64,000 nucleotides of DNA from contig NZ_CP038853.1 in the NCBI RefSeq assembly GCF_004792415.1, positions 124,001-188,000 on the forward strand, given 5' to 3'. The DNA comes from Pantoea vagans. Lineage in GTDB: Bacteria; Pseudomonadota; Gammaproteobacteria; Enterobacterales; Enterobacteriaceae. A program made the position numbers and the translations under genes. Of this stretch, positions 3,298-52,340 are shown piece by piece. The notes under the pieces are model-generated. The model saw only the letters and a program-made list of their open reading frames with translations, ran no database searches and was not told the DNA's origin. Within the stretch, counting starts at the first letter, position 1. Each line of letters opens with the position of its first letter.

Positions 3298-4479
3298 TCA
3301 GATGAAATTGCCGCGTGCAGAAACTGCGTGCTCTTCGCTATGCCCACTGGCGCGACGCAGAACAAAGCCATCCGACTGCGCCATCACTGCGCAGCTGTGA
3401 TTCGGGAAGATGCGAAGCAGCGTGCCGACTTCAGGACGGCGATCCTGATAAAGCAGAAAACCATGCTCCTCAGATAACTTTGTCACCTCATACGTGTGGC
3501 CCGCTTCGTCGGCTGCAACACCAAAGCCGCTGGCATTAGTGCCGTGTGGCCCTTTATCCGAACTCAGCATTTTCGATCCGGCATCCACAATTGCGAAATG
3601 ATCGTTTACCGCTACCACACGGGTAATGACGCTCATTGCCAGTTGGTCGACGTGACTTAGCCCGAGGCGACAGGCGGTAAGGTCCAGCAGTGCATAGTTG
3701 CCAGGCCGGATTTCACTGATGCCGGGCGCAACCTCGGCTGCCAGGGCCGTAGGCGTTGAACCCACAGAGAGCGGGCAGTCTGTAAATCCCGCAGCCTGCA
3801 GTCTTGCCTGAAGCTGCTGCATCAATACGGTTTCCTGCCTGGCAACATCAACAATAGCCGCGGCATTACCGGCACCATAAGCGTGACCGGCATGCGACAC
3901 TATTCCGGCAAAGCGTATGCCTCTGTCCCGCAGCGCCTGAGCAATCAGCACGGCTTCATCACTATCAGGATTAACACCAATCCGGTGTAATCCAACATCC
4001 ACCTTAATCGCCACCGCCAGCGTGCAGTCTGGCTGTTGCTGCCACGCATCTGCAATCGCTGCCACACCCTGCAGCCTGTCCGCGATCAGGGTAAGTTTTG
4101 CCTGATGAAGCACGGCGAGACGCAGCAACTCAGCTACGCATTGTGGTTGCACAACCGGGTAGGCTAACAGCAGATCGCGAACGCCCCCCTGAATAAAGCT
4201 GATACCTTCGCTGGGTTTAGAGACCGTGACACCCTGAGCACCATATTCAAGCTGACGCTGAGCAATCCAGACGCTTTTATGTGTTTTGATATGCGGACGC
4301 AGCGCGACGCCTGCCGCACTGGCTTTGCGCTGCATATGCTGCAGGTTCTGCTCCAGCCGCTCTGCATCCACTTCAATATAGGGCGTAAGGCGGTCATCAA
4401 TCAGCGGCCTCTGCCACTGCTGTGTATCGTTGATATCCATAAGCTTATCCGGCTTTAACGAGGTAAGAGGATTCATCAT
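3298..4479 (-). CDS. D-threonine aldolase / D-serine dehydratase-like PLP enzyme (fold type III)
   Basis: The 393-residue product has the alanine-racemase-like N-terminal barrel of the D-threonine aldolase family. The stretch RPHIKTHK contains the lysine that binds pyridoxal phosphate in this family, and SVGSTPTA and GNYALLD follow in the expected order. Near the C-terminus FPNHSCAV supplies the histidine and cysteine that coordinate the divalent metal. The family cleaves D-threonine to glycine and acetaldehyde or dehydrates D-serine or D-threo-3-hydroxyaspartate; sequence alone does not settle the substrate. The gene stands alone. Starts at 4479, 4476 and 4440 are possible, and the last has a better-spaced GGAT upstream. 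Confidence 0.8.
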   Translation of the reverse strand: MMNPLTSLKPDKLMDINDTQQWQRPLIDDRLTPYIEVDAERLEQNLQHMQRKASAAGVALRPHIKTHKSVWIAQRQLEYGAQGVTVSKPSEGISFIQGGVRDLLLAYPVVQPQCVAELLRLAVLHQAKLTLIADRLQGVAAIADAWQQQPDCTLAVAIKVDVGLHRIGVNPDSDEAVLIAQALRDRGIRFAGIVSHAGHAYGAGNAAAIVDVARQETVLMQQLQARLQAAGFTDCPLSVGSTPTALAAEVAPGISEIRPGNYALLDLTACRLGLSHVDQLAMSVITRVVAVNDHFAIVDAGSKMLSSDKGPHGTNASGFGVAADEAGHTYEVTKLSEEHGFLLYQDRRPEVGTLLRIFPNHSCAVMAQSDGFVLRRASGHSEEHAVSARGNFI

Positions 4480-4622
4480 TCCTTAATTAACTTTCTGATA
4501 CCAGCCTGGTGGCCGGGGAAGAGGCGCTGACCAGCAAAATTAAAGCGGGTGTTAACCCGGGATAGAGGATGCAGCACATGGATGAACTGGAGAGGATATT
4601 TAAGCAGACGGGATTAGCAGAA

Positions 4623-4648
4623 TAAAAAAAGCAGGCGCGGTGCCTGCT
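4623..4648 (-). terminator. Terminator of lpxP
   Basis: AGCAGGC and GCCTGCT form a stem, followed on the minus strand by a run of seven T. It sits just behind the leftward lpxP stop. The remaining bases between the aldolase-like gene and lpxP hold nothing else I can support. Confidence 0.75.
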
Positions 4649-4660
4649 TTATCTGTTTAC

Positions 4661-5584
4661 TCAGACATAGAGTGATTGTTCACCCGGCGGACGGGTTTTG
4701 AATCGGCGATGCAGCCAAAGATATTGTTCTGGTGCGCGCAGAATCTGATTCTCGATCACTTTATTCATATAAGCTGCAGCAGCAGCCTCGTCCGTATGAG
4801 GATAATTTTCCAGCATCGGCTCAATGATCAGATGGTAGCCATCATTATCTGCATTACGAATCAGCATAATCGGCACCATCGCTGGCTTCGCCAGACGCGA
4901 CAGCACAAAAGTGCCGTTGGTGGTGGCCGCTTTTTCTACCGCAAACAGTGGCGCAAAGGTGCTGCCTTTCGGGCCGTAATCCTGGTCCGGCGCAAACCAG
5001 ACCGATTCACCCTGTTTCAGAGCATTAACCATGCCGCGCAGATCGCGGCGGTCGATCATCGCTTTGTTTGAGCGCATCCGGCCTTTAGTCTGCACATATT
5101 CCATTGCCTGATTGTTGTGCGGGCGATACATCGCCATCATCGGCTGACAGAGACCGCTGATGCGGCCGCCCAGCTCCAGTGACATGAAATGCACGCCAAT
5201 CAGCATCACACCGCGCTTTTCATTCTGCGCAGCGTGGAGATTATCCATACCTGACACTTTAAACAGACGTTTTACCGCACGGTCAGACCAGAACCAGGCA
5301 ATACCGGTTTCAGCCAGCGCCATGCCTAACGACGCAAAATTACCGGCAATCATATGTTCTGTTTTTTCTTCACTGATGCCAGGAAAGCAGAGCTCAATGT
5401 TACGACGGGTGATTCGCTCACGGCGCTGCAGGAAATGACGGGAAATTTTGCCGGCACCGGCACCGAGACGCATAAGAACAGGGTAGGGAAGCTGGACCAG
5501 AAGCCAGAGCACACCAAGACCAAACCAGGTAAACCAATAACGCGGATGCAGCAGCGAACTGCTAAATTTTCCGGTGTTTTTCAT
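4661..5584 (-). CDS. lpxP: Lipid A palmitoleoyltransferase LpxP (LpxL family)
   Basis: The 307-residue inner-membrane acyltransferase has an N-terminal anchor (WFTWFGLGVLWLLVQLPYPVLM) and the HX4E catalytic motif HFMSLE. Compared from memory with E. coli LpxL and LpxP it follows LpxP more closely, for example GVHFMSLELGGR, GLCQPMMAMYRPHNNQ and WFAPDQDYGPKGSTFAPLFAVE. LpxP replaces laurate by palmitoleate on Kdo2-lipid IVA at low temperature and thereby keeps the outer membrane fluid. The ATG at 5584 with GAAGG about seven bases upstream is preferred over a TTG at 5590. LpxL cannot be fully excluded, since the two are paralogues. Confidence 0.85.
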   Translation of the reverse strand: MKNTGKFSSSLLHPRYWFTWFGLGVLWLLVQLPYPVLMRLGAGAGKISRHFLQRRERITRRNIELCFPGISEEKTEHMIAGNFASLGMALAETGIAWFWSDRAVKRLFKVSGMDNLHAAQNEKRGVMLIGVHFMSLELGGRISGLCQPMMAMYRPHNNQAMEYVQTKGRMRSNKAMIDRRDLRGMVNALKQGESVWFAPDQDYGPKGSTFAPLFAVEKAATTNGTFVLSRLAKPAMVPIMLIRNADNDGYHLIIEPMLENYPHTDEAAAAAYMNKVIENQILRAPEQYLWLHRRFKTRPPGEQSLYV

Positions 5585-6006
5585 TAACAACCTTCATGAG
5601 ATAGATGGATGTATCGCATAAAGAGCACTTCCATAAGTCTCCAGGCGGTACAGCTGTACTGATTTCGACCAACACTTTATCAAAAAGTGCCTTCAAAGAA
5701 AGGGAAACTGCGGAATCTACAGGATTGACCTGTTTCATGGAACCAGCGCTTCGGGTGCGAAGAAAGGGTTCACAACAGAAAAAAGATTTTAAATTCAGAA
5801 AATTAAAAAAGACAGACCTGAAAGTGAAAACGTGACAGACAGGCACTACAGAAGAGTCCGGAAATGATTATTTATCTATCTTTACGTAATAACGAGGCCA
5901 GCCACGCCCTCAGAACACCCTGCATGCTGATGTAGAAGAAAGGTCATTACTTAGAGAATGAACAAAGCGCCATCGCTGACGCTTCATCTCAGACCTGAGT
6001 TAAGAT
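5585..6006. other. Intergenic region between lpxP and the satellite left end
   Basis: This stretch should contain the lpxP promoter and leader. Open frames on both strands (for example 5605-5835 and 5562-5846) lack motifs and overlap each other, and I do not support them. Before the satellite inserted, this DNA would have adjoined the 3' end of yicC. Confidence 0.55.
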
Positions 6007-6027
6007 CTTACTCGATATTCTGAATCT
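6007..6027. repeat. Left attachment site (att core, copy 1)
   Basis: The 21 bases from CTTACTCG to GAATCT are identical to 18435-18455. The bases on either side differ, which defines the core. This copy is the one separated from yicC by the insertion. Confidence 0.9.
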
Positions 6028-6087
6028 AAATATTTAAATAAGTTTAAGGTTTTGTTTATAATGGGATTTATCTATATTATAAAATAT

Positions 6088-6107
6088 TTGGTACACCCTA
6101 TGGTACA
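6088..6107 (+). repeat. Paired GGTACA repeat near the left end, possible integrase arm site
   Basis: TTGGTACA and ATGGTACA are spaced 12 bp apart. The same pair with the same spacing and orientation recurs at 18308-18327 near the right end. Matching repeats at both ends fit integrase or excisionase arm-type binding sites, which is inference. Confidence 0.5.
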
Positions 6108-6241
6108 AAAAAACCACGATGAATGGTGTAGTGTGTGCGAACTTCCGCCAACTAAGGGCAAAGATGGTCTTTCACCCTTAGTTGAAGCAGTATATGGGAT
6201 CACCGCCGCCGGTCATGAGACCGTGAAGCCATTCATCGTGG
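6107..6241 (-). ncRNA. Structured RNA of the DRT3 system with a CACACAC template-like tract
   Basis: On the minus strand a closing stem of 13 bp pairs the complements of 6229-6241 and 6114-6126 and is followed directly by U7 (6107-6113), so it also acts as a terminator. Inside lie a 5-bp hairpin (6210-6214 with 6219-6223, loop 4) and a longer hairpin of 10 bp (6149-6158 with 6175-6184) capped by a further 5-bp stem. Between the long hairpin and the 3' closing arm is an unpaired CACACAC (6137 down to 6131). It lies 19 bp behind the second RT stop on the same strand. As I recall from recent DRT3 work, an ACACAC tract in the ncRNA templates GT-repeat DNA made by the first RT. The 5' end is a guess; a TTGCTA-N15-GATACT promoter-like pair ends near 6251. 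Confidence 0.75.
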
Positions 6242-6250
6242 CATCGAAAA

Positions 6251-6277
6251 AGTATCCTATCAGTAGACGCTTAGCAA
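6251..6277 (-). promoter_or_regulatory. Candidate promoter for the DRT3 RNA
   Basis: Read on the minus strand, TTGCTA and GATACT are separated by 15 bp, and transcription would start about 7 bases further, close to the first base of the closing stem. The spacing is short for sigma-70. The pair lies inside the last codons and 3' flank of the second RT gene. The RNA could equally be processed from the RT message. Confidence 0.3.
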
Positions 6278-8221
6278 TTCCTTTTTCTCTAAAAACATAC
6301 GTAAATCGAAGTTATCCCATTGTACAAACCAGTATTCGCGAGCTAGTTCTTTCCAATACGTATCAATTTCTTTGTTTGACGGTTTACGGCCCAGGTGCAG
6401 CTTAACGACTTCTGAAGCTAATCCTTTCCTCTTTTTTAGTTCAATAAATGGGCAGTTTATTATATCCAACATAAGATAGAATTTTAATGAATCTATTTTA
6501 ATGTCGGTAACATTCTCAAGAATTGACTTTACATGCTTAAACATTTTATCCTTTAAGCTGTTGTAATGAGTGTCATTATCTGCATAATAAAAGAATGTTA
6601 TTATCTCAAAATAACTGAAGTTTGTTCGTGTGTCTATGTTGTATATTGAGCTTAGAAAATCCCGTGTAAGCCTATAATCTTCCCCCAGCAATTTAAGAGC
6701 TATCAGTAGATTAAGGTTTTCAAATGCTATTTTTTTTATTCTATTACCTTTTTCAATTTCTATACATCTTTCAAAATAACTATGTATCAAGTTAAAAATT
6801 AACCCCTTCAGCATGCTTGCATCGTCAGAAATCATTTTAGTTGCATTTTTGCAAATTATGTCAACGAATATGCATATTTTAATAGAGGAGTTATGGCTTG
6901 GCGATATAAAAAACAGATGAAATATTATTTCAGTCGCCACATAGAAAAAGTCGCTTATGGTTTGCTCATTTAATTTTAAAAATTCAATATTAGCCTTGCA
7001 TTTTCTGTCAATGGTAATAGCAATATTTGTTAAGCATGAAATAGTATAGCCGGCCGCTAAATTATAGTTTTCTCTTTCAAGAACAAACATAGATTTTATC
7101 TTGTTCAGATAAGAAATTACTGTGTTTCTTCTGCTATAAATTCTTTTTATCTTTTCAGGGTTCTCAGGATCGAGAAATTTACTTGTTAGCGAGTTTAGTA
7201 TTTCATTTAATTGATTGATTGTCCCGGATTTTGCTGTTGAAAAAGGTCGGAAAGTAATGCTAATTTTTTGTTTATTGATTGTAAGCTTATATTTTTTAAG
7301 CGTATCTTCTACTATATCTCTGATGTCGTTGAGGATCTTTTCATTTAACGTGAAAACAAATATGTCGTCAACATATCTTCTGATTGTATAATCTCGACCG
7401 TTAGAGTAGCCAAGTTCTTTCAATTGGTTTTCAATATCACGGTCAATATCCTGAAAAATGATCTCTGAAAAAATTCTACTTACTTCGGGACCAATTATTA
7501 TACCCGCTGTTTCATTATAATTAATAGATTGCATTAGCCTGTCAAATATTGTTCCAAACGAGTTTTTTATCTGACGGTTTTGCTTGGAGAATTCTTTGTT
7601 TTTTATTGCCCAAGTTATGCTATGAGTGTAAATGCTGTCAAAGCACTTTGCGACATCTAAGCTGCAAAATACGTCGAACTTTTTTTCTAAATTAAGGAAT
7701 TCTTCTGAGTTAAAAAATTTATAAAGGCGAGTGTATCTATTATATGAAAAATAAGATGCTAAATGTTTGTATTTTTTTTCTTCTGTGTCAGATTGAATCT
7801 CGCCTCTTGAATATTCAAGATCATTCATTTCTGTATTTTTTATATAGTATTTTGATGATATTTTCGAAGGTGACCTTAGGCTGAAATCGCTTTTTTGGCA
7901 TGTAGATATGATTAAATTAGAAAAATTCTCATAAAACTCTGCAATGCAAATCTGGCTACGCGGATGTATTAGTGATAATACTCGCGATGAATCAATGTCT
8001 TTTTTTATCTTATAGGTAAGCGGGACAGTATAATCTTCGTTAAGATTTTTTTCAAAAAGAAAAGAAAGTATGCTGTTTTCAACTTTGTTTTTATTGTGAT
8101 AAGAAATGTTATTGTAAAATCCCAAGTTTGAAAAAATTGCGGGAACCTCATAAGGCGAAGTTTCTGTAAGAATCACCCTCAGAAAATCTTTCCTTTTAAC
8201 TTGTTTAGAAGTTCTCTTCAT
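6260..8221 (-). CDS. drt3b: DRT3 reverse transcriptase b (UG8-type), 653 residues
   Basis: The reverse-transcriptase core occupies about residues 180-320. LDVAKCFDSIYTH carries the first catalytic aspartate (about residue 189), TAGIIIGPEVSRIF is motif B, and RRYVDDIFVF holds the paired aspartates (about 285-286). A helical C-terminal extension of more than 300 residues without a known motif follows. The two-gene arrangement, lengths and order match DRT type 3, where a UG3 RT is followed by a longer UG8 RT and both are needed for phage defence. In recent reports, as I recall, this second RT makes the AC-repeat strand without a nucleic-acid template. I prefer the ATG at 8221, which forms an ATGA overlap with the stop of the upstream RT and has AAGGA nine bases before it, over the ATG at 8230, which abuts the AAGGA. 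The gene is strongly A+T-rich. Confidence 0.87.
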   Translation of the reverse strand: MKRTSKQVKRKDFLRVILTETSPYEVPAIFSNLGFYNNISYHNKNKVENSILSFLFEKNLNEDYTVPLTYKIKKDIDSSRVLSLIHPRSQICIAEFYENFSNLIISTCQKSDFSLRSPSKISSKYYIKNTEMNDLEYSRGEIQSDTEEKKYKHLASYFSYNRYTRLYKFFNSEEFLNLEKKFDVFCSLDVAKCFDSIYTHSITWAIKNKEFSKQNRQIKNSFGTIFDRLMQSINYNETAGIIIGPEVSRIFSEIIFQDIDRDIENQLKELGYSNGRDYTIRRYVDDIFVFTLNEKILNDIRDIVEDTLKKYKLTINKQKISITFRPFSTAKSGTINQLNEILNSLTSKFLDPENPEKIKRIYSRRNTVISYLNKIKSMFVLERENYNLAAGYTISCLTNIAITIDRKCKANIEFLKLNEQTISDFFYVATEIIFHLFFISPSHNSSIKICIFVDIICKNATKMISDDASMLKGLIFNLIHSYFERCIEIEKGNRIKKIAFENLNLLIALKLLGEDYRLTRDFLSSIYNIDTRTNFSYFEIITFFYYADNDTHYNSLKDKMFKHVKSILENVTDIKIDSLKFYLMLDIINCPFIELKKRKGLASEVVKLHLGRKPSNKEIDTYWKELAREYWFVQWDNFDLRMFLEKKELLSVY

Positions 8222-9501
8222 TTCCAACATTCCTTAATTTGTTTCAGTCGAGTATAATTAAAAGTATGGAATCGCACTAAGTAGAATCCATTTTTAAAAT
8301 TTAGCTTACATAATTCTCTTTTTTGTTTTATAGAAATGCATGTTGATAATCTTTTGTATAATTTGTTTTGTTTAGAAAATAATATACTTCGTAAGAAATT
8401 ATCTAAATTTTCAAGGGCGCAATTTAATGACGAGTTTTTGTGCTGGTAATTATAAAATATACCAGAGTTTATTTTAATACCCGAACTCGGATCTTTGATC
8501 GGGTAGTTCCCTGTTATAAATTTTATCCGATCATTTAGTAAATCAAAGTCCGTCTGAGATTGATTGCTTCCAATATAGGACAAGAACGATTTTATTATTC
8601 TTTTCTTTATTTTGACTATCTTCGTGCTAGATAAGTCAACCTGCACTTTTCTGTTATTGTTTGAAAATGTAAAGTCGTTATTATCATATACATTATAGAT
8701 TTTGAACTCGTAGCCTAGAAAGTCCATTTTAAAAGGCTGCTCTGATTGTAATTGAATTTTTTCCGAGCAGTCTCTGGCGCGCGAAACATTGAGAAATGCT
8801 AATTTATCTTTATCATGCAATTTAAGGTTTTTTGGTAATTTTTCAAAAAAATAGTCTATGATAATTTGCTTGGTTATTTTATCGCCATGATGCAAAATTA
8901 AAATGTCATCAACGAATCGTGAATAGAAGAAAACGTCTTTTCTTTTGAGGAAATAAGAATCTATATCCTGTAAGCAAAGCTCAGCAAGTGTGGCGCTTAA
9001 GCTTACTCCCCTTGGTAATCCTTGTATGTTTTTGCTGCTCAAGGATTCTTTGTATTTATAAAGAAGATTGAGGTTATATCTTGATATTCTGCCTTCTGAT
9101 GTTATTTTCTCGAGAAGAAAATTAAAATCTATGCTTTCGTAGAAGCTTCTTATATCAAGGCGAGTTATATTGTAAGGGCTTCCATCTTTCAAATGCGTTA
9201 TGAGGTTCTTTATAATTTCGTGCCTGTTGACCTTTCTGATTCTGTAGCCTTTTTTTATGTTTTTAACCAGCAGTTTTGATATAAGCTTATCTTCGATGTT
9301 GCTATATTTAACCCCTTTCTTTCCGGCTATGCTTATCTCTTTTATTCCATTGTCTAGGAAAAGCTTTGCTGCTGCCTTTGATTGAGCGCTTAATGATGCG
9401 GCGATCCTATTGGAGTAATCAATTAAAGTCTTATCTTCCATTAGGTCAGTGTATGTGATGCAGTCATAGAGGTTGCTATGCGTATAGGAAAGTTGCTCCA
9501 T
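8218..9501 (-). CDS. drt3a: DRT3 reverse transcriptase a (UG3-type), 427 residues
   Basis: This is a reverse transcriptase with LDIRSFYESID (residues 115-125, catalytic D116), GLPRGVSLSATLAEL (161-175, motif B) and RFVDDILI (195-202, catalytic D198 and D199), followed by FLGYEF (261-266). There is no maturase, endonuclease or integrase domain, so it is neither a group II intron nor a retron of the usual kind. It precedes the second RT in the same transcript with a 4-bp ATGA overlap. GGAAA about five bases before the ATG at 9501 supports the start. Assignment to the UG3/DRT3a group rests on length, partner gene and the downstream RNA. It is expected to copy the ACACAC tract of the RNA into GT-repeat DNA during phage infection; that is inference from published DRT3 work. 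Confidence 0.87.
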   Translation of the reverse strand: MEQLSYTHSNLYDCITYTDLMEDKTLIDYSNRIAASLSAQSKAAAKLFLDNGIKEISIAGKKGVKYSNIEDKLISKLLVKNIKKGYRIRKVNRHEIIKNLITHLKDGSPYNITRLDIRSFYESIDFNFLLEKITSEGRISRYNLNLLYKYKESLSSKNIQGLPRGVSLSATLAELCLQDIDSYFLKRKDVFFYSRFVDDILILHHGDKITKQIIIDYFFEKLPKNLKLHDKDKLAFLNVSRARDCSEKIQLQSEQPFKMDFLGYEFKIYNVYDNNDFTFSNNNRKVQVDLSSTKIVKIKKRIIKSFLSYIGSNQSQTDFDLLNDRIKFITGNYPIKDPSSGIKINSGIFYNYQHKNSSLNCALENLDNFLRSILFSKQNKLYKRLSTCISIKQKRELCKLNFKNGFYLVRFHTFNYTRLKQIKECWK

Positions 9502-9740
9502 ATATTTTCCTTTTTATTTTTTTGGAATTAACTATTTATCTTGTTAAGTCACATTTTGACCGATATCGAGGTTTGATTGATTTATAACTCAAAAAGTCCG
9601 TAGTGGTGACCGTTACACTACGAAAACCGATTTTAATGCAGATGTATGCTCATTCTAAAACTAAGGTAACTCAAACATTTATATTAATACTAAAGGAAAC
9701 CACGTTCTTATAGCTTCAAAGCCTACCTATATACATTACC
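9502..9740. other. Upstream region of the RT operon, with a hairpin at 9599-9622
   Basis: A+T-rich DNA that should hold the leftward promoter of the RT genes. The inverted repeat CGTAGTG...CACTACG (9599-9605 with 9616-9622) is followed on the minus strand by GACTTTTT, so it could be a weak terminator insulating the RT operon from the satellite genes, or an operator. No gene is visible. Confidence 0.45.
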
Positions 9741-9974
9741 CTACAGAAAATCTTTATGGTTGTGAACAAACTTCGCGTCGAAAACGTAGGGCTTAGTAAT
9801 TTTGCAATTCTGCCCATCTGCGCGCGCTCGTAGCCCCGCCACGCCTGCCCGCTTTATGCAGCGGTTTTCATGCACCTGCATGATTAGCTCTGAGCCGCGC
9901 CGCTGCTGGCCTTGCCTGCCGTTCCGGGATGCCCGAGACTCATGCATTTTCATGCAGCATAGACATGCACTCAC
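9741..9974 (-). pseudogene. Ash-like small satellite gene, apparently cut off at the cargo junction
   Basis: The 77-residue frame ends DAKFVHNHKDFL. As I remember it, proteins annotated Ash-like in P4-type satellites continue after a similar (K/R)F..N(H/Y)KDF stretch with MVAQAGQP-like residues. Here a stop follows immediately and the DNA changes from G+C-rich to A+T-rich at the same point. I read it as the 5' half of an Ash-family gene truncated by exchange of the cargo. It could also be a non-coding passenger frame, since the codons contain many repeats of CATGCA-like words. Confidence 0.35.
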
Positions 9975-9985
9975 GCAGCAGATGT

Positions 9986-10010
9986 AAAAAAGCCCGGCAC
10001 GGGCCGGGCT
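9986..10010 (-). terminator. Terminator of the satellite delta-psu transcript
   Basis: GCCCGGC (9992-9998) pairs with GCCGGGC (10003-10009). Read leftwards the stem is followed by six T. It lies 25 bp behind the stop of the psu-position gene. Confidence 0.85.
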
Positions 10011-10034
10011 TCGGTGAGTTCCTGAGTCTGCGGC

Positions 10035-10847
10035 TCAGAAAAGTTTACGCTTGCGGCGGTCGGTTCTGGCTCCCCGGAAAGGATGCGCACCGCTGACGCT
10101 CAGCACGTCATCACGGAACATCAGCGGCTGATTTACGCTCGTCCATCGCTTAATGAGGTTCTGGACATATACGCGGTACAGCGTATCGGCATCGTTCGCG
10201 CCTTCGATAACCCCCGGTGCATGCGTTGAGCCATTCCGTTCAAACTGGCTGTACTTCATCCTGAGCAGGCTGCTCAGCTCTGCGCCGTGAATGATAAAGA
10301 AGTCATCAATAAGCGTATCAATACGCTCATCCGTGATGCCCTCATGACAGAATACGTAAGCGTTAGCCTTGCGCCCGGTTACATCTGCCAACACCGGCAG
10401 CTGCTTTTCCTTTTCGGCAATCAGCCCGGCAAGGTCTGATGCCGTTTCCTGCTGCTCCAGATACTCCGCGCGCAGCGCCTTCATCTCCGGCGTGACGTTG
10501 CCGCCATTCTGTCCCAGCAGTTCACGGAAGTGTACCCGGTTGTCCCGGCTTACCTGCTCCATTTCGGCCTTACGCTGGCGCAGCTCACTGAGATTTTCAG
10601 TAGCGTCGTTTTCGGTCTGCCTTGCCTCCAGCCAGGCCAGCATCTTCGTGTTGAGGTCTTCGATACGCAGCCGCCATTCAGAGGACAGCCCCTTTACCAG
10701 CTCAGTGGTGTGCCTGATCACGTCGGCCTCGGGTAACCGCAGGAGCCATCCGGCTTCCTTGAGTGGCCGCTGTGATCTGGCCTGCGCCGTGCCTATACGG
10801 TTGCCAGCGGTCTGAATCTGTTCGTCGGTCATCTGCTGCTGTGTCAT
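10035..10847 (-). CDS. Satellite late protein in the psu position, 270 residues
   Basis: The start MTQQQMTDEQIQTAG at 10847 has GAGAGGAAA upstream; the longer open frame to 11129 runs through the neighbouring delta gene and is not used. The protein is rich in charged helices (for example residues about 60-160, LNTKMLAWLEARQTENDATENLSELRQ pattern), contains a heptad-like region, and has a basic C-terminus (RTDRRKRKLF). In P4 the gene downstream of delta is psu, whose product decorates the satellite capsid and inhibits Rho. The location fits, but at 270 residues it is longer than the roughly 190 of P4 Psu and I cannot see clear similarity. Treat the Psu assignment as positional. Confidence 0.6.
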   Translation of the reverse strand: MTQQQMTDEQIQTAGNRIGTAQARSQRPLKEAGWLLRLPEADVIRHTTELVKGLSSEWRLRIEDLNTKMLAWLEARQTENDATENLSELRQRKAEMEQVSRDNRVHFRELLGQNGGNVTPEMKALRAEYLEQQETASDLAGLIAEKEKQLPVLADVTGRKANAYVFCHEGITDERIDTLIDDFFIIHGAELSSLLRMKYSQFERNGSTHAPGVIEGANDADTLYRVYVQNLIKRWTSVNQPLMFRDDVLSVSGAHPFRGARTDRRKRKLF

Positions 10848-10864
10848 GCTGTTTTTCCTCTCTG

Positions 10865-11140
10865 TCAGGGCTGTGCGTGACGGTCTTTGCGGGCACTGGC
10901 TGAGCCATAGCGGCCCAGCGTCTGCGGCTGGCGAACCGGTACGTCGTTCTGCTGTTCTGGCTCTGCCGCCACGGATTTTTGCGGCTTCATAATGATTTTC
11001 TCGACGCTCTCCAGCGCGGTGAACGTGCAGGAACAGTCGAGGTTCTGGCACTGATACCAGGTGCGCTTTACGGACGGGGCTTCGTAGGCGCTGGTGCGGG
11101 TGTGGGCTACCTGACCGCATTCGGGACATTTCAGGGCCAT
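10865..11140 (-). CDS. Delta/Ogr-like zinc-finger transcription activator
   Basis: The 91-residue protein opens MALKCPECGQVAHTRTS and has a second cysteine pair in YQCQNLDCSCTF, giving the CX2C...CX4C zinc site of the Ogr/Delta family. Delta of P4 switches on late promoters of the satellite and of its P2-type helper. The ATG at 11140 is preceded by AGGA; the longer frame to 11287 has no support. The tail after residue 55 is poorly conserved in such proteins. It is followed at 17 bp by the psu-position gene and preceded by the iteron region. Confidence 0.88.
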   Translation of the reverse strand: MALKCPECGQVAHTRTSAYEAPSVKRTWYQCQNLDCSCTFTALESVEKIIMKPQKSVAAEPEQQNDVPVRQPQTLGRYGSASARKDRHAQP

Positions 11141-11277
11141 TTCTTTTTCCTGTATGGTCGTTTTCAGTAAGTCAATTGTGCCGGGGCTGGCACAGGTGAG
11201 CCATGTGCGGGCGGTGTGCCGTGCCTGACACAACGCCTGCCAGAAAAGGGCTGCTGGCTGACTTACCTTCTGTAAGC

Positions 11278-11472
11278 GGTGTAACACGGGTGACAGGTGT
11301 TACAGCTGTGAATTAAAAGGATATTTTCTTATTCTTCCGGTGTAACACGACGGGTAACACGGTGTAACAGCGTTGACAGATGCGTTACACCTGTTACACC
11401 TCACCAGTTAGAGAGGTGTAACAGGCTGATGCCTTACTGAATGCGGCTGTTACACCCGTTACACCTGTTACC
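11278..11472. repeat. Iteron array (GGTGTAACA-type), likely satellite replication region
   Basis: About ten copies of GGTGTAAC or GGTGTTAC-like words occur on both strands, at 11278, 11296, 11339, 11351, 11361, about 11384-11400, 11415, about 11447 and 11458-11472. They sit between alpha and delta. In P4 the alpha protein binds short iterons at ori and at the cis-required crr region, so this is a good candidate for ori or crr of the element. The rest of the 366-bp gap holds the delta promoter region. Confidence 0.75.
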
Positions 11473-16333: not shown

Positions 16334-17047
16334 TCACTCCTCATCATAAAGTGAGTTAAGAGATGCTCTCAGCTTGTCGTAAAAAGAAGATTTACCCATC
16401 CCTTTTTGGCTTATGCCATTAGATTTCGCATAATCGCTCAACAATCTGTGCAAAGGTTCGATGCTTGGGGAACCAGCATTGTTAATCCACTTTGTCGATC
16501 CACTGGCTGATTTTTCCATAGCGAGATTGATCGCGAGCAAACCTATAATTTTATGAAGAGATGCATTCTCCTCGTTTTTCTTGTGGGCACCACGCTTGTC
16601 CTGAGCATTTTCTTTAGCAATTAAAACTGCCTTTTCGCCGCCACACTGAAAAATGAGTGATTCACCATACTTTTTATATGTTTGACTCAAGGCTTGAGTG
16701 CATCTTTCAATCAAAAAATCGGGAGTTACATCTTTTTCAAGAAGAATGAAACAAGATGAGAAAAGGATGTTTGCCTCTATGGGGCTATTGGTCGCGATTG
16801 TTTTAGGATAAAGTATGTCCAGTTCATTTTGCTTTCCTTGTGATTTAAGGATAGCGTGTAAATTCCTGTTAACTCTAATGAGATATACACAATAATCACT
16901 GATAATACTGTTTTTATCTTTCGGTAACTCATCGTTTCTAAGGTTAGGATCAACATTGGCTAATGCTCTAGCTAATTCCTTTATTTCAACTTGAGGGTAG
17001 TGGACTAGCCTTTCAATGGAGCTACCTTTTGAGAAACTAAAATGCAT
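16334..17047 (-). CDS. Unknown 237-residue protein translationally coupled to the integrase
   Basis: I do not recognise a family. The protein is soluble, with no signal peptide or membrane helix. The middle (about residues 95-140) has FSSCFILLEKDVTPDFLIERC, a charged linker KENAQDKRGAHKKNEEN follows, and then a helical block IIGLLAINLAMEK. The C-terminal third (LSDYAKSNGISQKGMGKSSFYDKLRASL) looks like a helix-turn-helix. Its ATG overlaps the integrase stop as TAATG, so it is made from the int message. The DNA is A+T-rich like int. A role in controlling integration, or an accessory or defence role, is possible. Confidence 0.7.
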   Translation of the reverse strand: MHFSFSKGSSIERLVHYPQVEIKELARALANVDPNLRNDELPKDKNSIISDYCVYLIRVNRNLHAILKSQGKQNELDILYPKTIATNSPIEANILFSSCFILLEKDVTPDFLIERCTQALSQTYKKYGESLIFQCGGEKAVLIAKENAQDKRGAHKKNEENASLHKIIGLLAINLAMEKSASGSTKWINNAGSPSIEPLHRLLSDYAKSNGISQKGMGKSSFYDKLRASLNSLYDEE

Positions 17048-18267
17048 TATAACTTCGCCTCTATTTCAGCCAGAAAATCAGCTAGTTTATTAAGCGCTAA
17101 TTTTCTTTCATTAAAGTAATTATGTCTATTGTAGATACCTTCAACGCCTTTAATGCGATGGTTAAGACAACGCTCTGCCACCACTGGGTCAATACCTAAA
17201 AAGGCCAGATGTGTTCTGGCGGTTCGCCTGAAGTCGTGGATAGTAAAGCCTTCAACATCCTCCATAAGCGGTTTAAGCTTTGCCAGCGCTACGGGAAGAG
17301 TGCTTTCTGCAATGTGAGGTATCATCCTATTCTGCATCTTTCTTGCAGGCAGAACCCATTCACTGCCTAAAGAGAGTTGCTTTAGCTCATTCAGCCAAAC
17401 CAAAGATAATTCAGGAAGAGGGATATCCAGGTTGTCGCCATTTTTAGTGTTTTTCAAATACCACACGCCCTCTTCAAGGTTAAAATCTTCCCATTTGGCC
17501 GAGCACAGTTCCATTTTCCTGCAGCAAAGAAGTAAAAGTAGTTTAAAAGTTATTTCATTCTGTCGGCTAAATCCTTTAGCTATTTTCATCGCGCGAAAAA
17601 GTAACGTAATTTCCTCTTCCGAAAGAAAACGATCTCTGGATTTTTCCTGTCCACCTGCATCATTGTTATCAAAGGCTGCCGCTGGGTTAACACTCAGATA
17701 GTGACGTTTTATACCATAGTTGAATATGCGCTTTATCCAACGTAATACATCATTAGCGATAGTTGGCGCGCCGCGTTGAACAATGCTTTGCAACATTTTA
17801 TCAATATCACCAGGCTTAACGTCTTCAGCCTTTATGTTGCCTATGTGAGGATTAATATCTTTTTCAATGCGCCTGCGAAGAATATCGGGGTGTTTCCAGC
17901 GTCCAACAATTTGTTTCTCGTAGTACTCAATCGCAAGGTCAGAAACACGACGAGCATTCTTCTCTTTCTCGATTTTGGCAAGCGTAGAGGCTTTACGCTC
18001 CTGCTTCTCTCCGGCGACGTCATAGCCTAAAGCTACTCTTGCCGATAGCTCTCTGGCCCGTTCGCGCGCTTTTGCTAAGGATAGATCTCCGTATGAACCG
18101 ATCCACATCGCACGAGCTTTGCCTCCGTAGCTGTAGCGAAAGCGCCATTTAGGTATTGAGAACTCTTTGCGGTAGCAAAGGTACAATCCGTTTCCGTCAG
18201 AACGTCCTTCAAACCGTTCCTGAGACTTGAGCCAGGCTTTTATCTGTATGTCTGTTAGCTTTCCCAT
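17047..18267 (-). CDS. int: P4-type tyrosine integrase
   Basis: The 406-residue recombinase has the DUF4102 N-terminal domain (GNGLYLCYRKEF, WRFRYSYGGKARAMWIGSYGDLSLAKAR), a core-binding domain and the catalytic domain. Catalytic residues are R250 in CCRKMEL, H344 and R347 in HDFRR, H370 in LNHRI and Y379 in GIYNRHNY. The TTG of the longest frame lies at 18285; the ATG at 18267 (MGKLTDIQIK) is the likely start. The gene lies next to the right att with its 5' end outward, the standard P4 layout. Because the integration site is yicC and not a tRNA gene, this integrase should have a distinct core specificity. Confidence 0.93.
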   Translation of the reverse strand: MGKLTDIQIKAWLKSQERFEGRSDGNGLYLCYRKEFSIPKWRFRYSYGGKARAMWIGSYGDLSLAKARERARELSARVALGYDVAGEKQERKASTLAKIEKEKNARRVSDLAIEYYEKQIVGRWKHPDILRRRIEKDINPHIGNIKAEDVKPGDIDKMLQSIVQRGAPTIANDVLRWIKRIFNYGIKRHYLSVNPAAAFDNNDAGGQEKSRDRFLSEEEITLLFRAMKIAKGFSRQNEITFKLLLLLCCRKMELCSAKWEDFNLEEGVWYLKNTKNGDNLDIPLPELSLVWLNELKQLSLGSEWVLPARKMQNRMIPHIAESTLPVALAKLKPLMEDVEGFTIHDFRRTARTHLAFLGIDPVVAERCLNHRIKGVEGIYNRHNYFNERKLALNKLADFLAEIEAKL

Positions 18268-18307
18268 TCTGCCTGCTTGTACCAAACCGATAACGGTAAA
18301 AGGATAA

Positions 18308-18401: not shown

Positions 18402-18434
18402 GTTGTTATGACATCATGTGAAAGTAAGTGAGAA

Positions 18435-18455
18435 CTTACTCGATATTCTGAATCT
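18435..18455. repeat. Right attachment site (att core, copy 2) at the yicC 3' end
   Basis: Identical over 21 bases to 6007-6027. It includes the last six codons and the stop of yicC, so integration leaves the gene intact. Confidence 0.9.
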
Positions 18456-51758: not shown

Positions 51759-52268
51759 ATGCGCAAATTAACCGCCGTCGTCCTTGCCTCAGCGATGGCT
51801 CTGAGTGTCGCCAGCGCAGGTGCTAAAGATGCGACGACGATTGACGAGATGCATCATGGCGGATTGCCGACAGGCAGTATGACGCAAAATCCGCAAAGCC
51901 ACATGTTCGATGGTATCGAGCTGACTGAAGAGCAGCGTCAGCAGATGCGTGACCTGATGCAACAGGCCCGACATGAGCGCCCGGTCGTTCATATTGATGA
52001 TATCGCAGCACTACACGACTTAGTGACTGCAGACCAGTTTAACGAAGCGGCCATCCGCGCAAAGGCGGAAGTCATCGCCAGAGTTCAGGTTGAACAGCAG
52101 GTTGAGATGGCGCGCGTACAGAATCAAATGTTTCAACTGCTAACGCCGGACCAGCAGGCCACGTTGCAGAAGAATTACCAGCGGCGACTTAATGAGCTGC
52201 GACAGTTTTCGAATCTGCATTCAGCGTCATCGCTGCAGGCAGTGAGTAGTACCAGCAGTAACCAGTAA
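51759..52268 (+). CDS. cpxP: Periplasmic Cpx inhibitor and chaperone CpxP
   Basis: The 169-residue protein has a signal peptide (MRKLTAVVLASAMALSVASAG) and the two LTxxQ-type motifs, LTEEQRQQMRDLM and LTPDQQATLQKN, of the CpxP/Spy family. It damps CpxA and delivers misfolded proteins to DegP. It is divergent from cpxRA with a CpxR box between. Confidence 0.95.
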   Translation: MRKLTAVVLASAMALSVASAGAKDATTIDEMHHGGLPTGSMTQNPQSHMFDGIELTEEQRQQMRDLMQQARHERPVVHIDDIAALHDLVTADQFNEAAIRAKAEVIARVQVEQQVEMARVQNQMFQLLTPDQQATLQKNYQRRLNELRQFSNLHSASSLQAVSSTSSNQ

Positions 52269-52311
52269 CATAGTATCCCTGTTTTCCTTGCCATAGACAC
52301 ATCCCTGTCTT

Positions 52312-52340
52312 CCCCCGCCATGATGGTGGGGGTTTTTTTT
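52312..52340 (+). terminator. Terminator of cpxP
   Basis: CCCCCGCC and GGTGGGGG form an 8-bp stem (one G-U pair) followed by eight T. Confidence 0.85.

What the first reader, a model, noticed from the sequence alone, without database searches (positions are those of the whole stretch)
6107..9501. Two-reverse-transcriptase DRT3 defence module with its RNA inside a P4-like satellite
Two adjacent, A+T-rich RT genes (both with intact catalytic DD motifs and no intron or endonuclease domain) are coupled by ATGA and followed on the same strand by a folded RNA. Gene order and sizes match the UG3+UG8 pair known as DRT type 3. The position between the psu-place gene and the att site is the classic cargo slot of P4-type satellites, so the satellite probably arms its host against other phages. 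I could not compare this pair with described DRT3 members.
Basis: partly seen in the sequence, partly recalled or inferred. Interest (0 to 1): 0.92.

Follow-up and report, generated by a model that had tools for sequence, protein, structure and literature searches.

The report
DRT3 antiphage module in P4-like satellite
A small phage satellite in this bacterium carries a recently explained two-enzyme-plus-RNA immune module that is thought to make repetitive GT/AC DNA to stop phages; it is a genuine, intact-looking relative of a known system, and its RNA copying template is almost unchanged in the distant relatives examined.

Summary
The reading holds. Window 8218-9501(-) is Drt3a and 6260-8221(-) Drt3b, far above curated cut-offs and matching solved DRT3 structures. 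The downstream RNA (6242-6113, -) folds better than 200 of 200 shuffles; a covariance model built from 10 relatives without the window has one hit in 64 kb, here. It carries 5'-ACACAC-3' directly 3' of a hairpin, as published for DRT3, and Drt3b has the published gate and primer residues (E25, R80, R249, Y653). The module sits in a 12.4-kb P4-like satellite at yicC; a congener shows the empty site. DRT3 and its mechanism are known, and E. coli C21 has a DRT3 in the same slot: a new member of a known kind. Added here: ACACAC follows drt3b in 75 of 77 genome loci and 16 of 16 viral contigs; the gate is E or D in 77 of 78 rows; this RNA clade differs from the E. coli ones; the sequenced parts of the cassette are about 99% identical in a second species whose satellite is about 96% identical overall. 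Defence was not tested.

The parts
8218..9501 (-). drt3a: RNA-templated reverse transcriptase (UG3), 427 aa, catalytic FVDD
   Evidence: PADLOC Drt3a 7.7e-118; NF041747 331.8 bits, cut-off 200; PDB 9z6y_A Drt3a 1.6e-43
6260..8221 (-). drt3b: reverse transcriptase expected to work without a nucleic-acid template (UG8), 653 aa from the ATGA-coupled start (656 aa from the upstream ATG at 8230), catalytic YVDD; E25, R80, R249, Y653 align with E22, R71, R241, Y666 of EcoDRT3b
   Evidence: PADLOC Drt3b 2.7e-204; NF041748 624.8 bits, cut-off 350; PDB 9z6y_H 1.8e-114 and 26cz_A 3.3e-97; residues by alignment, with a tag of 108 residues assumed for 26cz
6113..6242 (-). DRT3 non-coding RNA: 14-bp outer stem (6242-6229 with 6126-6113) enclosing four hairpins, the last at 6148-6137
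   Evidence: fold z -5.9, 0 of 200 shuffles; only hit up to E 10 of relative-built covariance model R1 in 64 kb, 6111-6241, 24.9 bits, E 6e-4
6131..6136 (-). 5'-ACACAC-3' template for Drt3a, unpaired in the fold and directly 3' of the fourth hairpin
   Evidence: published template in PMC13174585
6003..6027 (+). left att repeat of the satellite
18431..18455 (+). right att repeat, overlapping the 3' end of yicC
17047..18285 (-). tyrosine integrase of the satellite
   Evidence: PF00589, PF13356, PF22022
11507..14179 (-). P4 alpha-type primase-helicase
   Evidence: phrog_1139 3e-176; PF06048, Toprim_3; best E. coli matches 84% DNA identity
10865..11140 (-). Ogr/Delta-type late activator
   Evidence: PF04606 1.1e-15 with the longer ORF 10865-11287; phrog_603 1.3e-20
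10035..10856 (-). psu-like polarity suppression gene
   Evidence: phrog_6165 8.3e-22; no Pfam match

Best explanation
This is a complete type 3 defence-associated reverse transcriptase (DRT3) system carried as cargo by a P4-like phage satellite. Drt3a most likely copies the ACACAC site of the adjacent RNA over and over into poly(dTdG). Drt3b, primed on its C-terminal Tyr653 and steered by E25 and R249, most likely makes the complementary poly(dCdA) without any nucleic-acid template. The strands anneal to repeat dsDNA that host RecBCD normally removes; a phage that blocks RecBCD lets it build up and the infected cell stops growing. Shown here by computation: genes, RNA, template, key residues, satellite and its insertion site. 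Inferred from the published E. coli system: all biochemistry and the RecBCD trigger.
For: Family assignment. RNA found by an independent covariance model whose 10-sequence seed shows covariation: 97.5% of cells paired against 31.6-44.5% when slid, 12 of 21 pairs with changes on both sides. ACACAC within 300 nt of drt3b in 75 of 77 genome loci against 193 of 3850 shuffles, and in 16 of 16 IMG/VR loci. Gate residues conserved. Published mechanism in PMC13174585. recB is present in the host genome. Empty site in a congener.
Against: No expression, product or phage data for this locus. Its proteins are only about 32-34% identical to the two E. coli DRT3s fetched here, and its RNA is not of their sequence class: the model of its clade found one weak hit in 61 other loci (L112, E 0.48, on the strand opposite drt3b). 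All three structural features around the template hold in 42 of 95 RNAs (the window is one of the 42), not in all. Of the loci scored, L027, L066, L083 and L085 lack ACACAC within 300 nt. Drt3a has FVDD where the E. coli enzymes have YVDD. No cos site or P2-like scaffold gene was found. The Drt3b structure prediction did not finish.
Confidence: 0.9

Rival explanations
1. The genes are DRT3-like but the module is non-functional or decaying cargo.
For: No expression data; the satellite's integrase (97-98% identical) was seen in only 2 of the 11 other congener loci fetched, out of 39 other congener genomes searched.
Against: Both ORFs are full length with intact catalytic, gate and primer residues. 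In a second species the RNA is unchanged (1 difference in 160 nt, outside the RNA), drt3b differs at 5 of 492 nt and drt3a is 99.26% identical over 809 nt.
Confidence: 0.06
2. The pair works like DRT3 but Drt3b or Drt3a makes a different repeat here.
For: Drt3b is distant from the solved enzymes; Drt3a has FVDD; the RNA belongs to another sequence class.
Against: The template is ACACAC and the E, R and Tyr residues are all conserved.
Confidence: 0.04
3. The folded RNA is an ordinary transcription terminator or a repeat element at the att site.
For: It ends 85 nt from the att repeat and its outer stem is followed by a run of U.
Against: Architecture, ACACAC site and covariation are shared with RNAs behind drt3b in ten relatives of other genera or from metagenomes, whose model finds this RNA. 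The simple terminator scan did not list it, but that scan allows only loops of 3-8 bases and so says little.
Confidence: 0.03

Closest known systems
EcoDRT3 (Drt3a + Drt3b + ncRNA; PMC13174585; Deng et al. 2026, not read)
   Same: RNA encoded downstream of drt3b, ACACAC in a loop next to a stem-loop, YVDD in Drt3b, E, R, R gate residues and a terminal Tyr primer
   Different: Low protein identity; the model of this RNA clade does not recognise the E. coli RNAs fetched here (L127, L128; the RNA of EcoDRT3 itself was not fetched); Drt3a has FVDD; the Tyr is the last residue rather than the penultimate one; carried by a satellite at yicC
DRT3 of E. coli C21 in a P4-like element (L127)
   Same: Same cargo slot next to psu-like, Ogr/Delta and TOPRIM-DUF927 genes; the fetched part of the primase is 93.5% identical
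   Different: Drt3a 33.8% and Drt3b 34.4% identical, in a distant part of the tree; gate residue D instead of E
P4-like satellite defence hotspot (Rousset et al. 2022, PMC9122126)
   Same: Defence cargo next to psu and cos; passages read mention retrons, an RT-nitrilase system and restriction systems there
   Different: DRT3 is not mentioned in the passages I read, and yicC does not occur in the main text; here the integrase lies at the other end of the integrated element
DRT9 and DRT10
   Same: PMC13174585 places the ACACAC loop analogously to the templates of DRT9 and DRT10 RNAs; DRT10 makes tandem-repeat DNA (start of the PMC12632851 abstract in a search listing)
   Different: No Drt3b-type partner (from the descriptions seen; not tested here)

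Membership tests
DRT3 | UG3-type RT (Drt3a) | tested here: met
   331.8 bits against curated cut-off 200
DRT3 | UG8-type RT (Drt3b) adjacent on the same strand | tested here: met
   624.8 bits against cut-off 350; ATGA overlap
DRT3 | ncRNA encoded downstream of drt3b | tested here: met
   (computation; no RNA data)
DRT3 | ACACAC template next to a stem-loop | tested here: met
   6136-6131(-), directly after hairpin 6148-6137
DRT3 | Drt3b gate residues E22, R71, R241 and primer Tyr666 | tested here: met
   E25, R80, R249, Y653 by alignment
[quoted passage not shown]
   needs biochemistry or product sequencing
DRT3 | phage defence; toxicity without RecBCD | not testable with these tools
   needs plaque and viability assays
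P4-like satellite | alpha primase, Ogr/Delta, psu and tyrosine integrase between att repeats | tested here: met
P4-like satellite | cos packaging site | tested here: inconclusive
   A 19-base cos consensus recalled from memory gave 0 matches with up to 3 mismatches; the probe may be wrong or the site diverged
P4-like satellite | mobilisation by a P2-like helper | not testable with these tools
   the P2 scaffold family PF05929 has no match in the host genome, so no helper is evident there
retron / group II intron / AbiK | best match to these RT families | tested here: not met
   scores far below Drt3a and Drt3b

The most novel reading that the evidence does not exclude
DRT3 is a family whose DNA product is frozen while RNA sequence and proteins diverge: the AC template and the E/D-plus-R gate of Drt3b stay fixed together across phyla. 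P4-type satellites have apparently picked up such modules at least three separate times and trade them as a cassette, perhaps because a RecBCD-guarding weapon hits competitor phages that encode RecBCD inhibitors while sparing the helper.
Probability: 0.35. Interest if true: 0.6.

Novelty: new member of a known kind. Interest (0 to 1): 0.42.

Why it matters
The published DRT3 RNA model started from relatives of EcoDRT3 and covers 41 systems (PMC13174585, legend and methods). This locus belongs to another RNA clade with its own covariation, and the survey indicates that RNA template and protein gate are kept together widely. It also gives a mobile, satellite-borne DRT3 with a clean empty site, which makes it testable whether a satellite uses this weapon against competitors without harming its helper.

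Tried and rejected
Looked for co-variation between RNA template and protein gate: the gate is E in 53, D in 24 and H in 1 of 78 rows, but loci with each of the three letters have an ACACAC template, so no matching template switch was seen. In Rfam nothing reached the gathering score at this place (the only hit in the window is Hrs1, elsewhere). The clade model R1 does not recognise the more distant DRT3 RNAs among the 61 loci given to it. A search for the P4 cos site found nothing. In the phage collection the satellite backbone had no match and Drt3b only partial matches in 9 records, none covering 80%. For a P2-like helper in the host genome, PF05929 gave none and PF05954 four hits; the one on contig C2 lies in a stretch whose plasmid matches are type VI secretion genes including vgrG, the other three were not examined. 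Host name: that stretch matches Pantoea ananatis plasmids best, at 76% over 55%, but most of the 38 matching records are Cronobacter (13) and Rahnella (9), with Pantoea 6; the genus is not established.
Full report
WHAT IS THERE. Two overlapping minus-strand genes encode RTs of 427 and 653 aa (8218-9501 and 6260-8221). PADLOC gives Drt3a 7.7e-118 and Drt3b 2.7e-204 as best families, NCBIfam gives Drt3a 331.8 bits (cut-off 200) and Drt3b 624.8 bits (cut-off 350), and Pfam sees only RVT_1 in each. In the PDB the best matches are the solved Drt3a (9z6y_A, 1.6e-43) and Drt3b chains (9z6y_H, 1.8e-114; 26cz_A, 3.3e-97). The genes are 30-34% G+C against 50-66% in the next 3 kb to their right.

KEY RESIDUES. 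PMC13174585 (seen: outline and abstract, results parts 1 and 2 of 3, the RecBCD section, figure legends part 1 of 2, the method sections on the RNA model and on residue conservation, and passages) reports that EcoDRT3b uses E22 and R241, with R71, to alternate dA and dC and primes on Y666. By alignment these are E25, R80, R249 and Y653 in the window. Over the window plus 77 of the 80 genome loci (L026, L056 and L075 dropped because their N-terminus is missing or misaligned) the gate is E 53, D 24, H 1; R249 is R in 78 of 78; R80 is R in 76 of 78; the Tyr is present in 74, with gaps in the other 4. All 120 Drt3b homologues listed (of 1501 found) end in Tyr. Drt3a here has FVDD; FVDD was the first pattern match in 109 of the 120 Drt3a homologues listed (of 587 found), and I did not check the other 11. 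So FVDD is normal among its relatives.

THE RNA. The stretch 6242-6113(-) folds into a 14-bp outer stem around four hairpins, with ACACAC at 6136-6131 unpaired right after the fourth; 0 of 200 shuffles fold as well, z -5.9. Ten RNAs from the nearest Drt3b relatives (A3, made without the window) share a 17-bp outer stem and the template-adjacent hairpin: 97.5% of cells paired against 31.6-44.5% when partners are slid, and 12 of 21 pairs with changes on both sides, reached by 1 of 500 shuffles (the structure came from these sequences, so the paired percentage leans its way). A covariance model of these ten (R1) has one hit in the 64-kb window up to E 10: 6111-6241(-), 24.9 bits, E 6e-4 (E-values are rough). 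With filters off over 5600-10030 the next best place scores 3.9 bits. The same model found one weak hit in 61 of the other loci (L112, E 0.48, on the strand opposite drt3b), so this is a sequence clade apart from, for example, the RNAs of E. coli L127 and L128, although those also carry ACACAC.

FAMILY-WIDE TEMPLATE. Loci were chosen by Drt3b peptide patterns, blind to the RNA; the best 80 of 214 were kept. ACACAC occurs within 300 nt after drt3b in 75 of 77 loci (L001, L055 and L077 were too short), against 193 of 3850 shuffles and 3 of 77 for GTGTGT; near-copies are included. It occurs in 16 of 16 IMG/VR loci and in 9 of 11 Enterobacterales whole-genome loci, one of which is the window itself (a twelfth, L092, is broken up and was left out). 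Against: L027 (Snodgrassella alvi) has none on that strand anywhere in the locus; L066 has it only at 366 nt; L083 and L085 have shorter CACACA and CACAC sites, that of L085 just after a hairpin. Around the template, at least 5 of 6 unpaired bases (55 of 95 against 11.7% of 1629 control sites), a hairpin ending within 3 nt (70 of 95 against 26.8%) and enclosure hold together in 42 of 95 RNAs against 1.8%; enclosure alone does not discriminate (93 of 95 against 96.9%) (L027 could not be scored).

THE SATELLITE. Between 25-bp repeats at 6003 and 18431 (96% identical) lie a tyrosine integrase, an alpha-type primase, Ogr/Delta and psu-like genes. The right repeat overlaps the 3' end of yicC. In congener G267 the left flank aligns to locus L148 up to 10556 and the right flank from 10532 on, so one 25-bp copy stands where the window has 12.4 kb. 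The cargo lies between psu and the left att, so in an excised circle it would sit between psu and int (inference), the hotspot described in PMC9122126 (passages read). The best E. coli match to the backbone covers 71% of a 3.9-kb query at 84%; 1462 of 5426 genomes have some match.

MOVEMENT OF THE CARGO. Congener G412 has the same satellite in two contig pieces; the middle of the cassette was not seen. Over 6100-6259 there is 1 difference, outside the RNA; over the drt3b tail 5 in 492; over the drt3a piece identity is 99.26%. The long piece as a whole is 95.87% identical; psu to alpha is 94.9% and int 95.1%, but backbone bins of 500 nt vary from 89.8 to 99.2%. This fits a cassette exchanged more recently than the backbone (inference). 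E. coli C21 (L127) has another DRT3 in the same slot, and IMG/VR loci L118, L122 and L126 also lie with P4-type genes (most loci hold only about 4-6 kb of flank, the whole-genome ones about 1.5 kb, so others may be missed). In a quick tree of 91 Drt3b rows the window, L127, and L118 with L122 fall in separate groups; L126 has a very long branch. The tool's own count, over the 8 labelled rows only, forces 2 changes of the P4 label, no fewer than shuffled labels (171 of 500 as low). At least three captures is therefore my reading, not a test result. In complete E. coli genomes 27 of 5426 have DNA similar to drt3b at this sensitivity, over 7% of the query; among Enterobacterales whole genomes 12 of 394, the window's own included, have Drt3b above the cut-off.

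MECHANISM AND LIMITS. By analogy with EcoDRT3 the module should make poly(TG)/poly(CA) duplex, kept low by RecBCD and released when a phage blocks RecBCD (PMC13174585). The host has recB and a single Drt3b. Nothing about activity was measured here. PMC13314766 was seen as abstract, section 4 part 1 and passages, PMC13213688 as abstract and outline. That DRT3 in P4-like satellites was not found described rests on the listings and the passages, in open-licence papers only. The annotation of E. coli C21 shows that the arrangement is already in public genomes.

Noticed in passing
L027 (Snodgrassella alvi), 4001-9995: Drt3a/Drt3b pair with E and R gate residues but no ACACAC on that strand anywhere in the locus; possibly an orphan pair or an RNA elsewhere.
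   Followed up: partly
L074 (Moraxella caprae), Drt3b N-terminus: The gate position that is E or D in the other 77 rows reads H (PYHMP), while the downstream site is CACACACAC; a possible natural gate variant.
   Followed up: no
L085 and L083 downstream of drt3b: Shortened sites (CACAC followed by G; CACACA), that of L085 directly after a predicted hairpin: possible short-template variants.
   Followed up: partly
window 6100-9501 against L145/L146 (congener G412): The sequenced parts of the DRT3 cassette are about 99% identical between two species while the satellite is about 96% identical overall, suggesting cassette exchange.
   Followed up: partly
L112, L114, L115, L116, L125 (IMG/VR): Related DRT3 modules on viral contigs of 32-45 kb, two of them (L112, L116) with an Ogr/Delta gene in the fetched stretch; probably prophage-borne DRT3.
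   Followed up: no
L146:8073-10449; G408 and G422 near yicC: In congener G412 about 2.4 kb of other DNA, with an ORF that looks like Hcp by eye, lies between the conserved left flank and the att site; G408 and G422 have a second copy of the 25-bp att repeat about 2-3 kb from yicC: a repeatedly used insertion point.
   Followed up: no
window 52266-52339 (-): Hrs1, an Hfq-regulated sRNA, above the Rfam gathering score.
   Followed up: no
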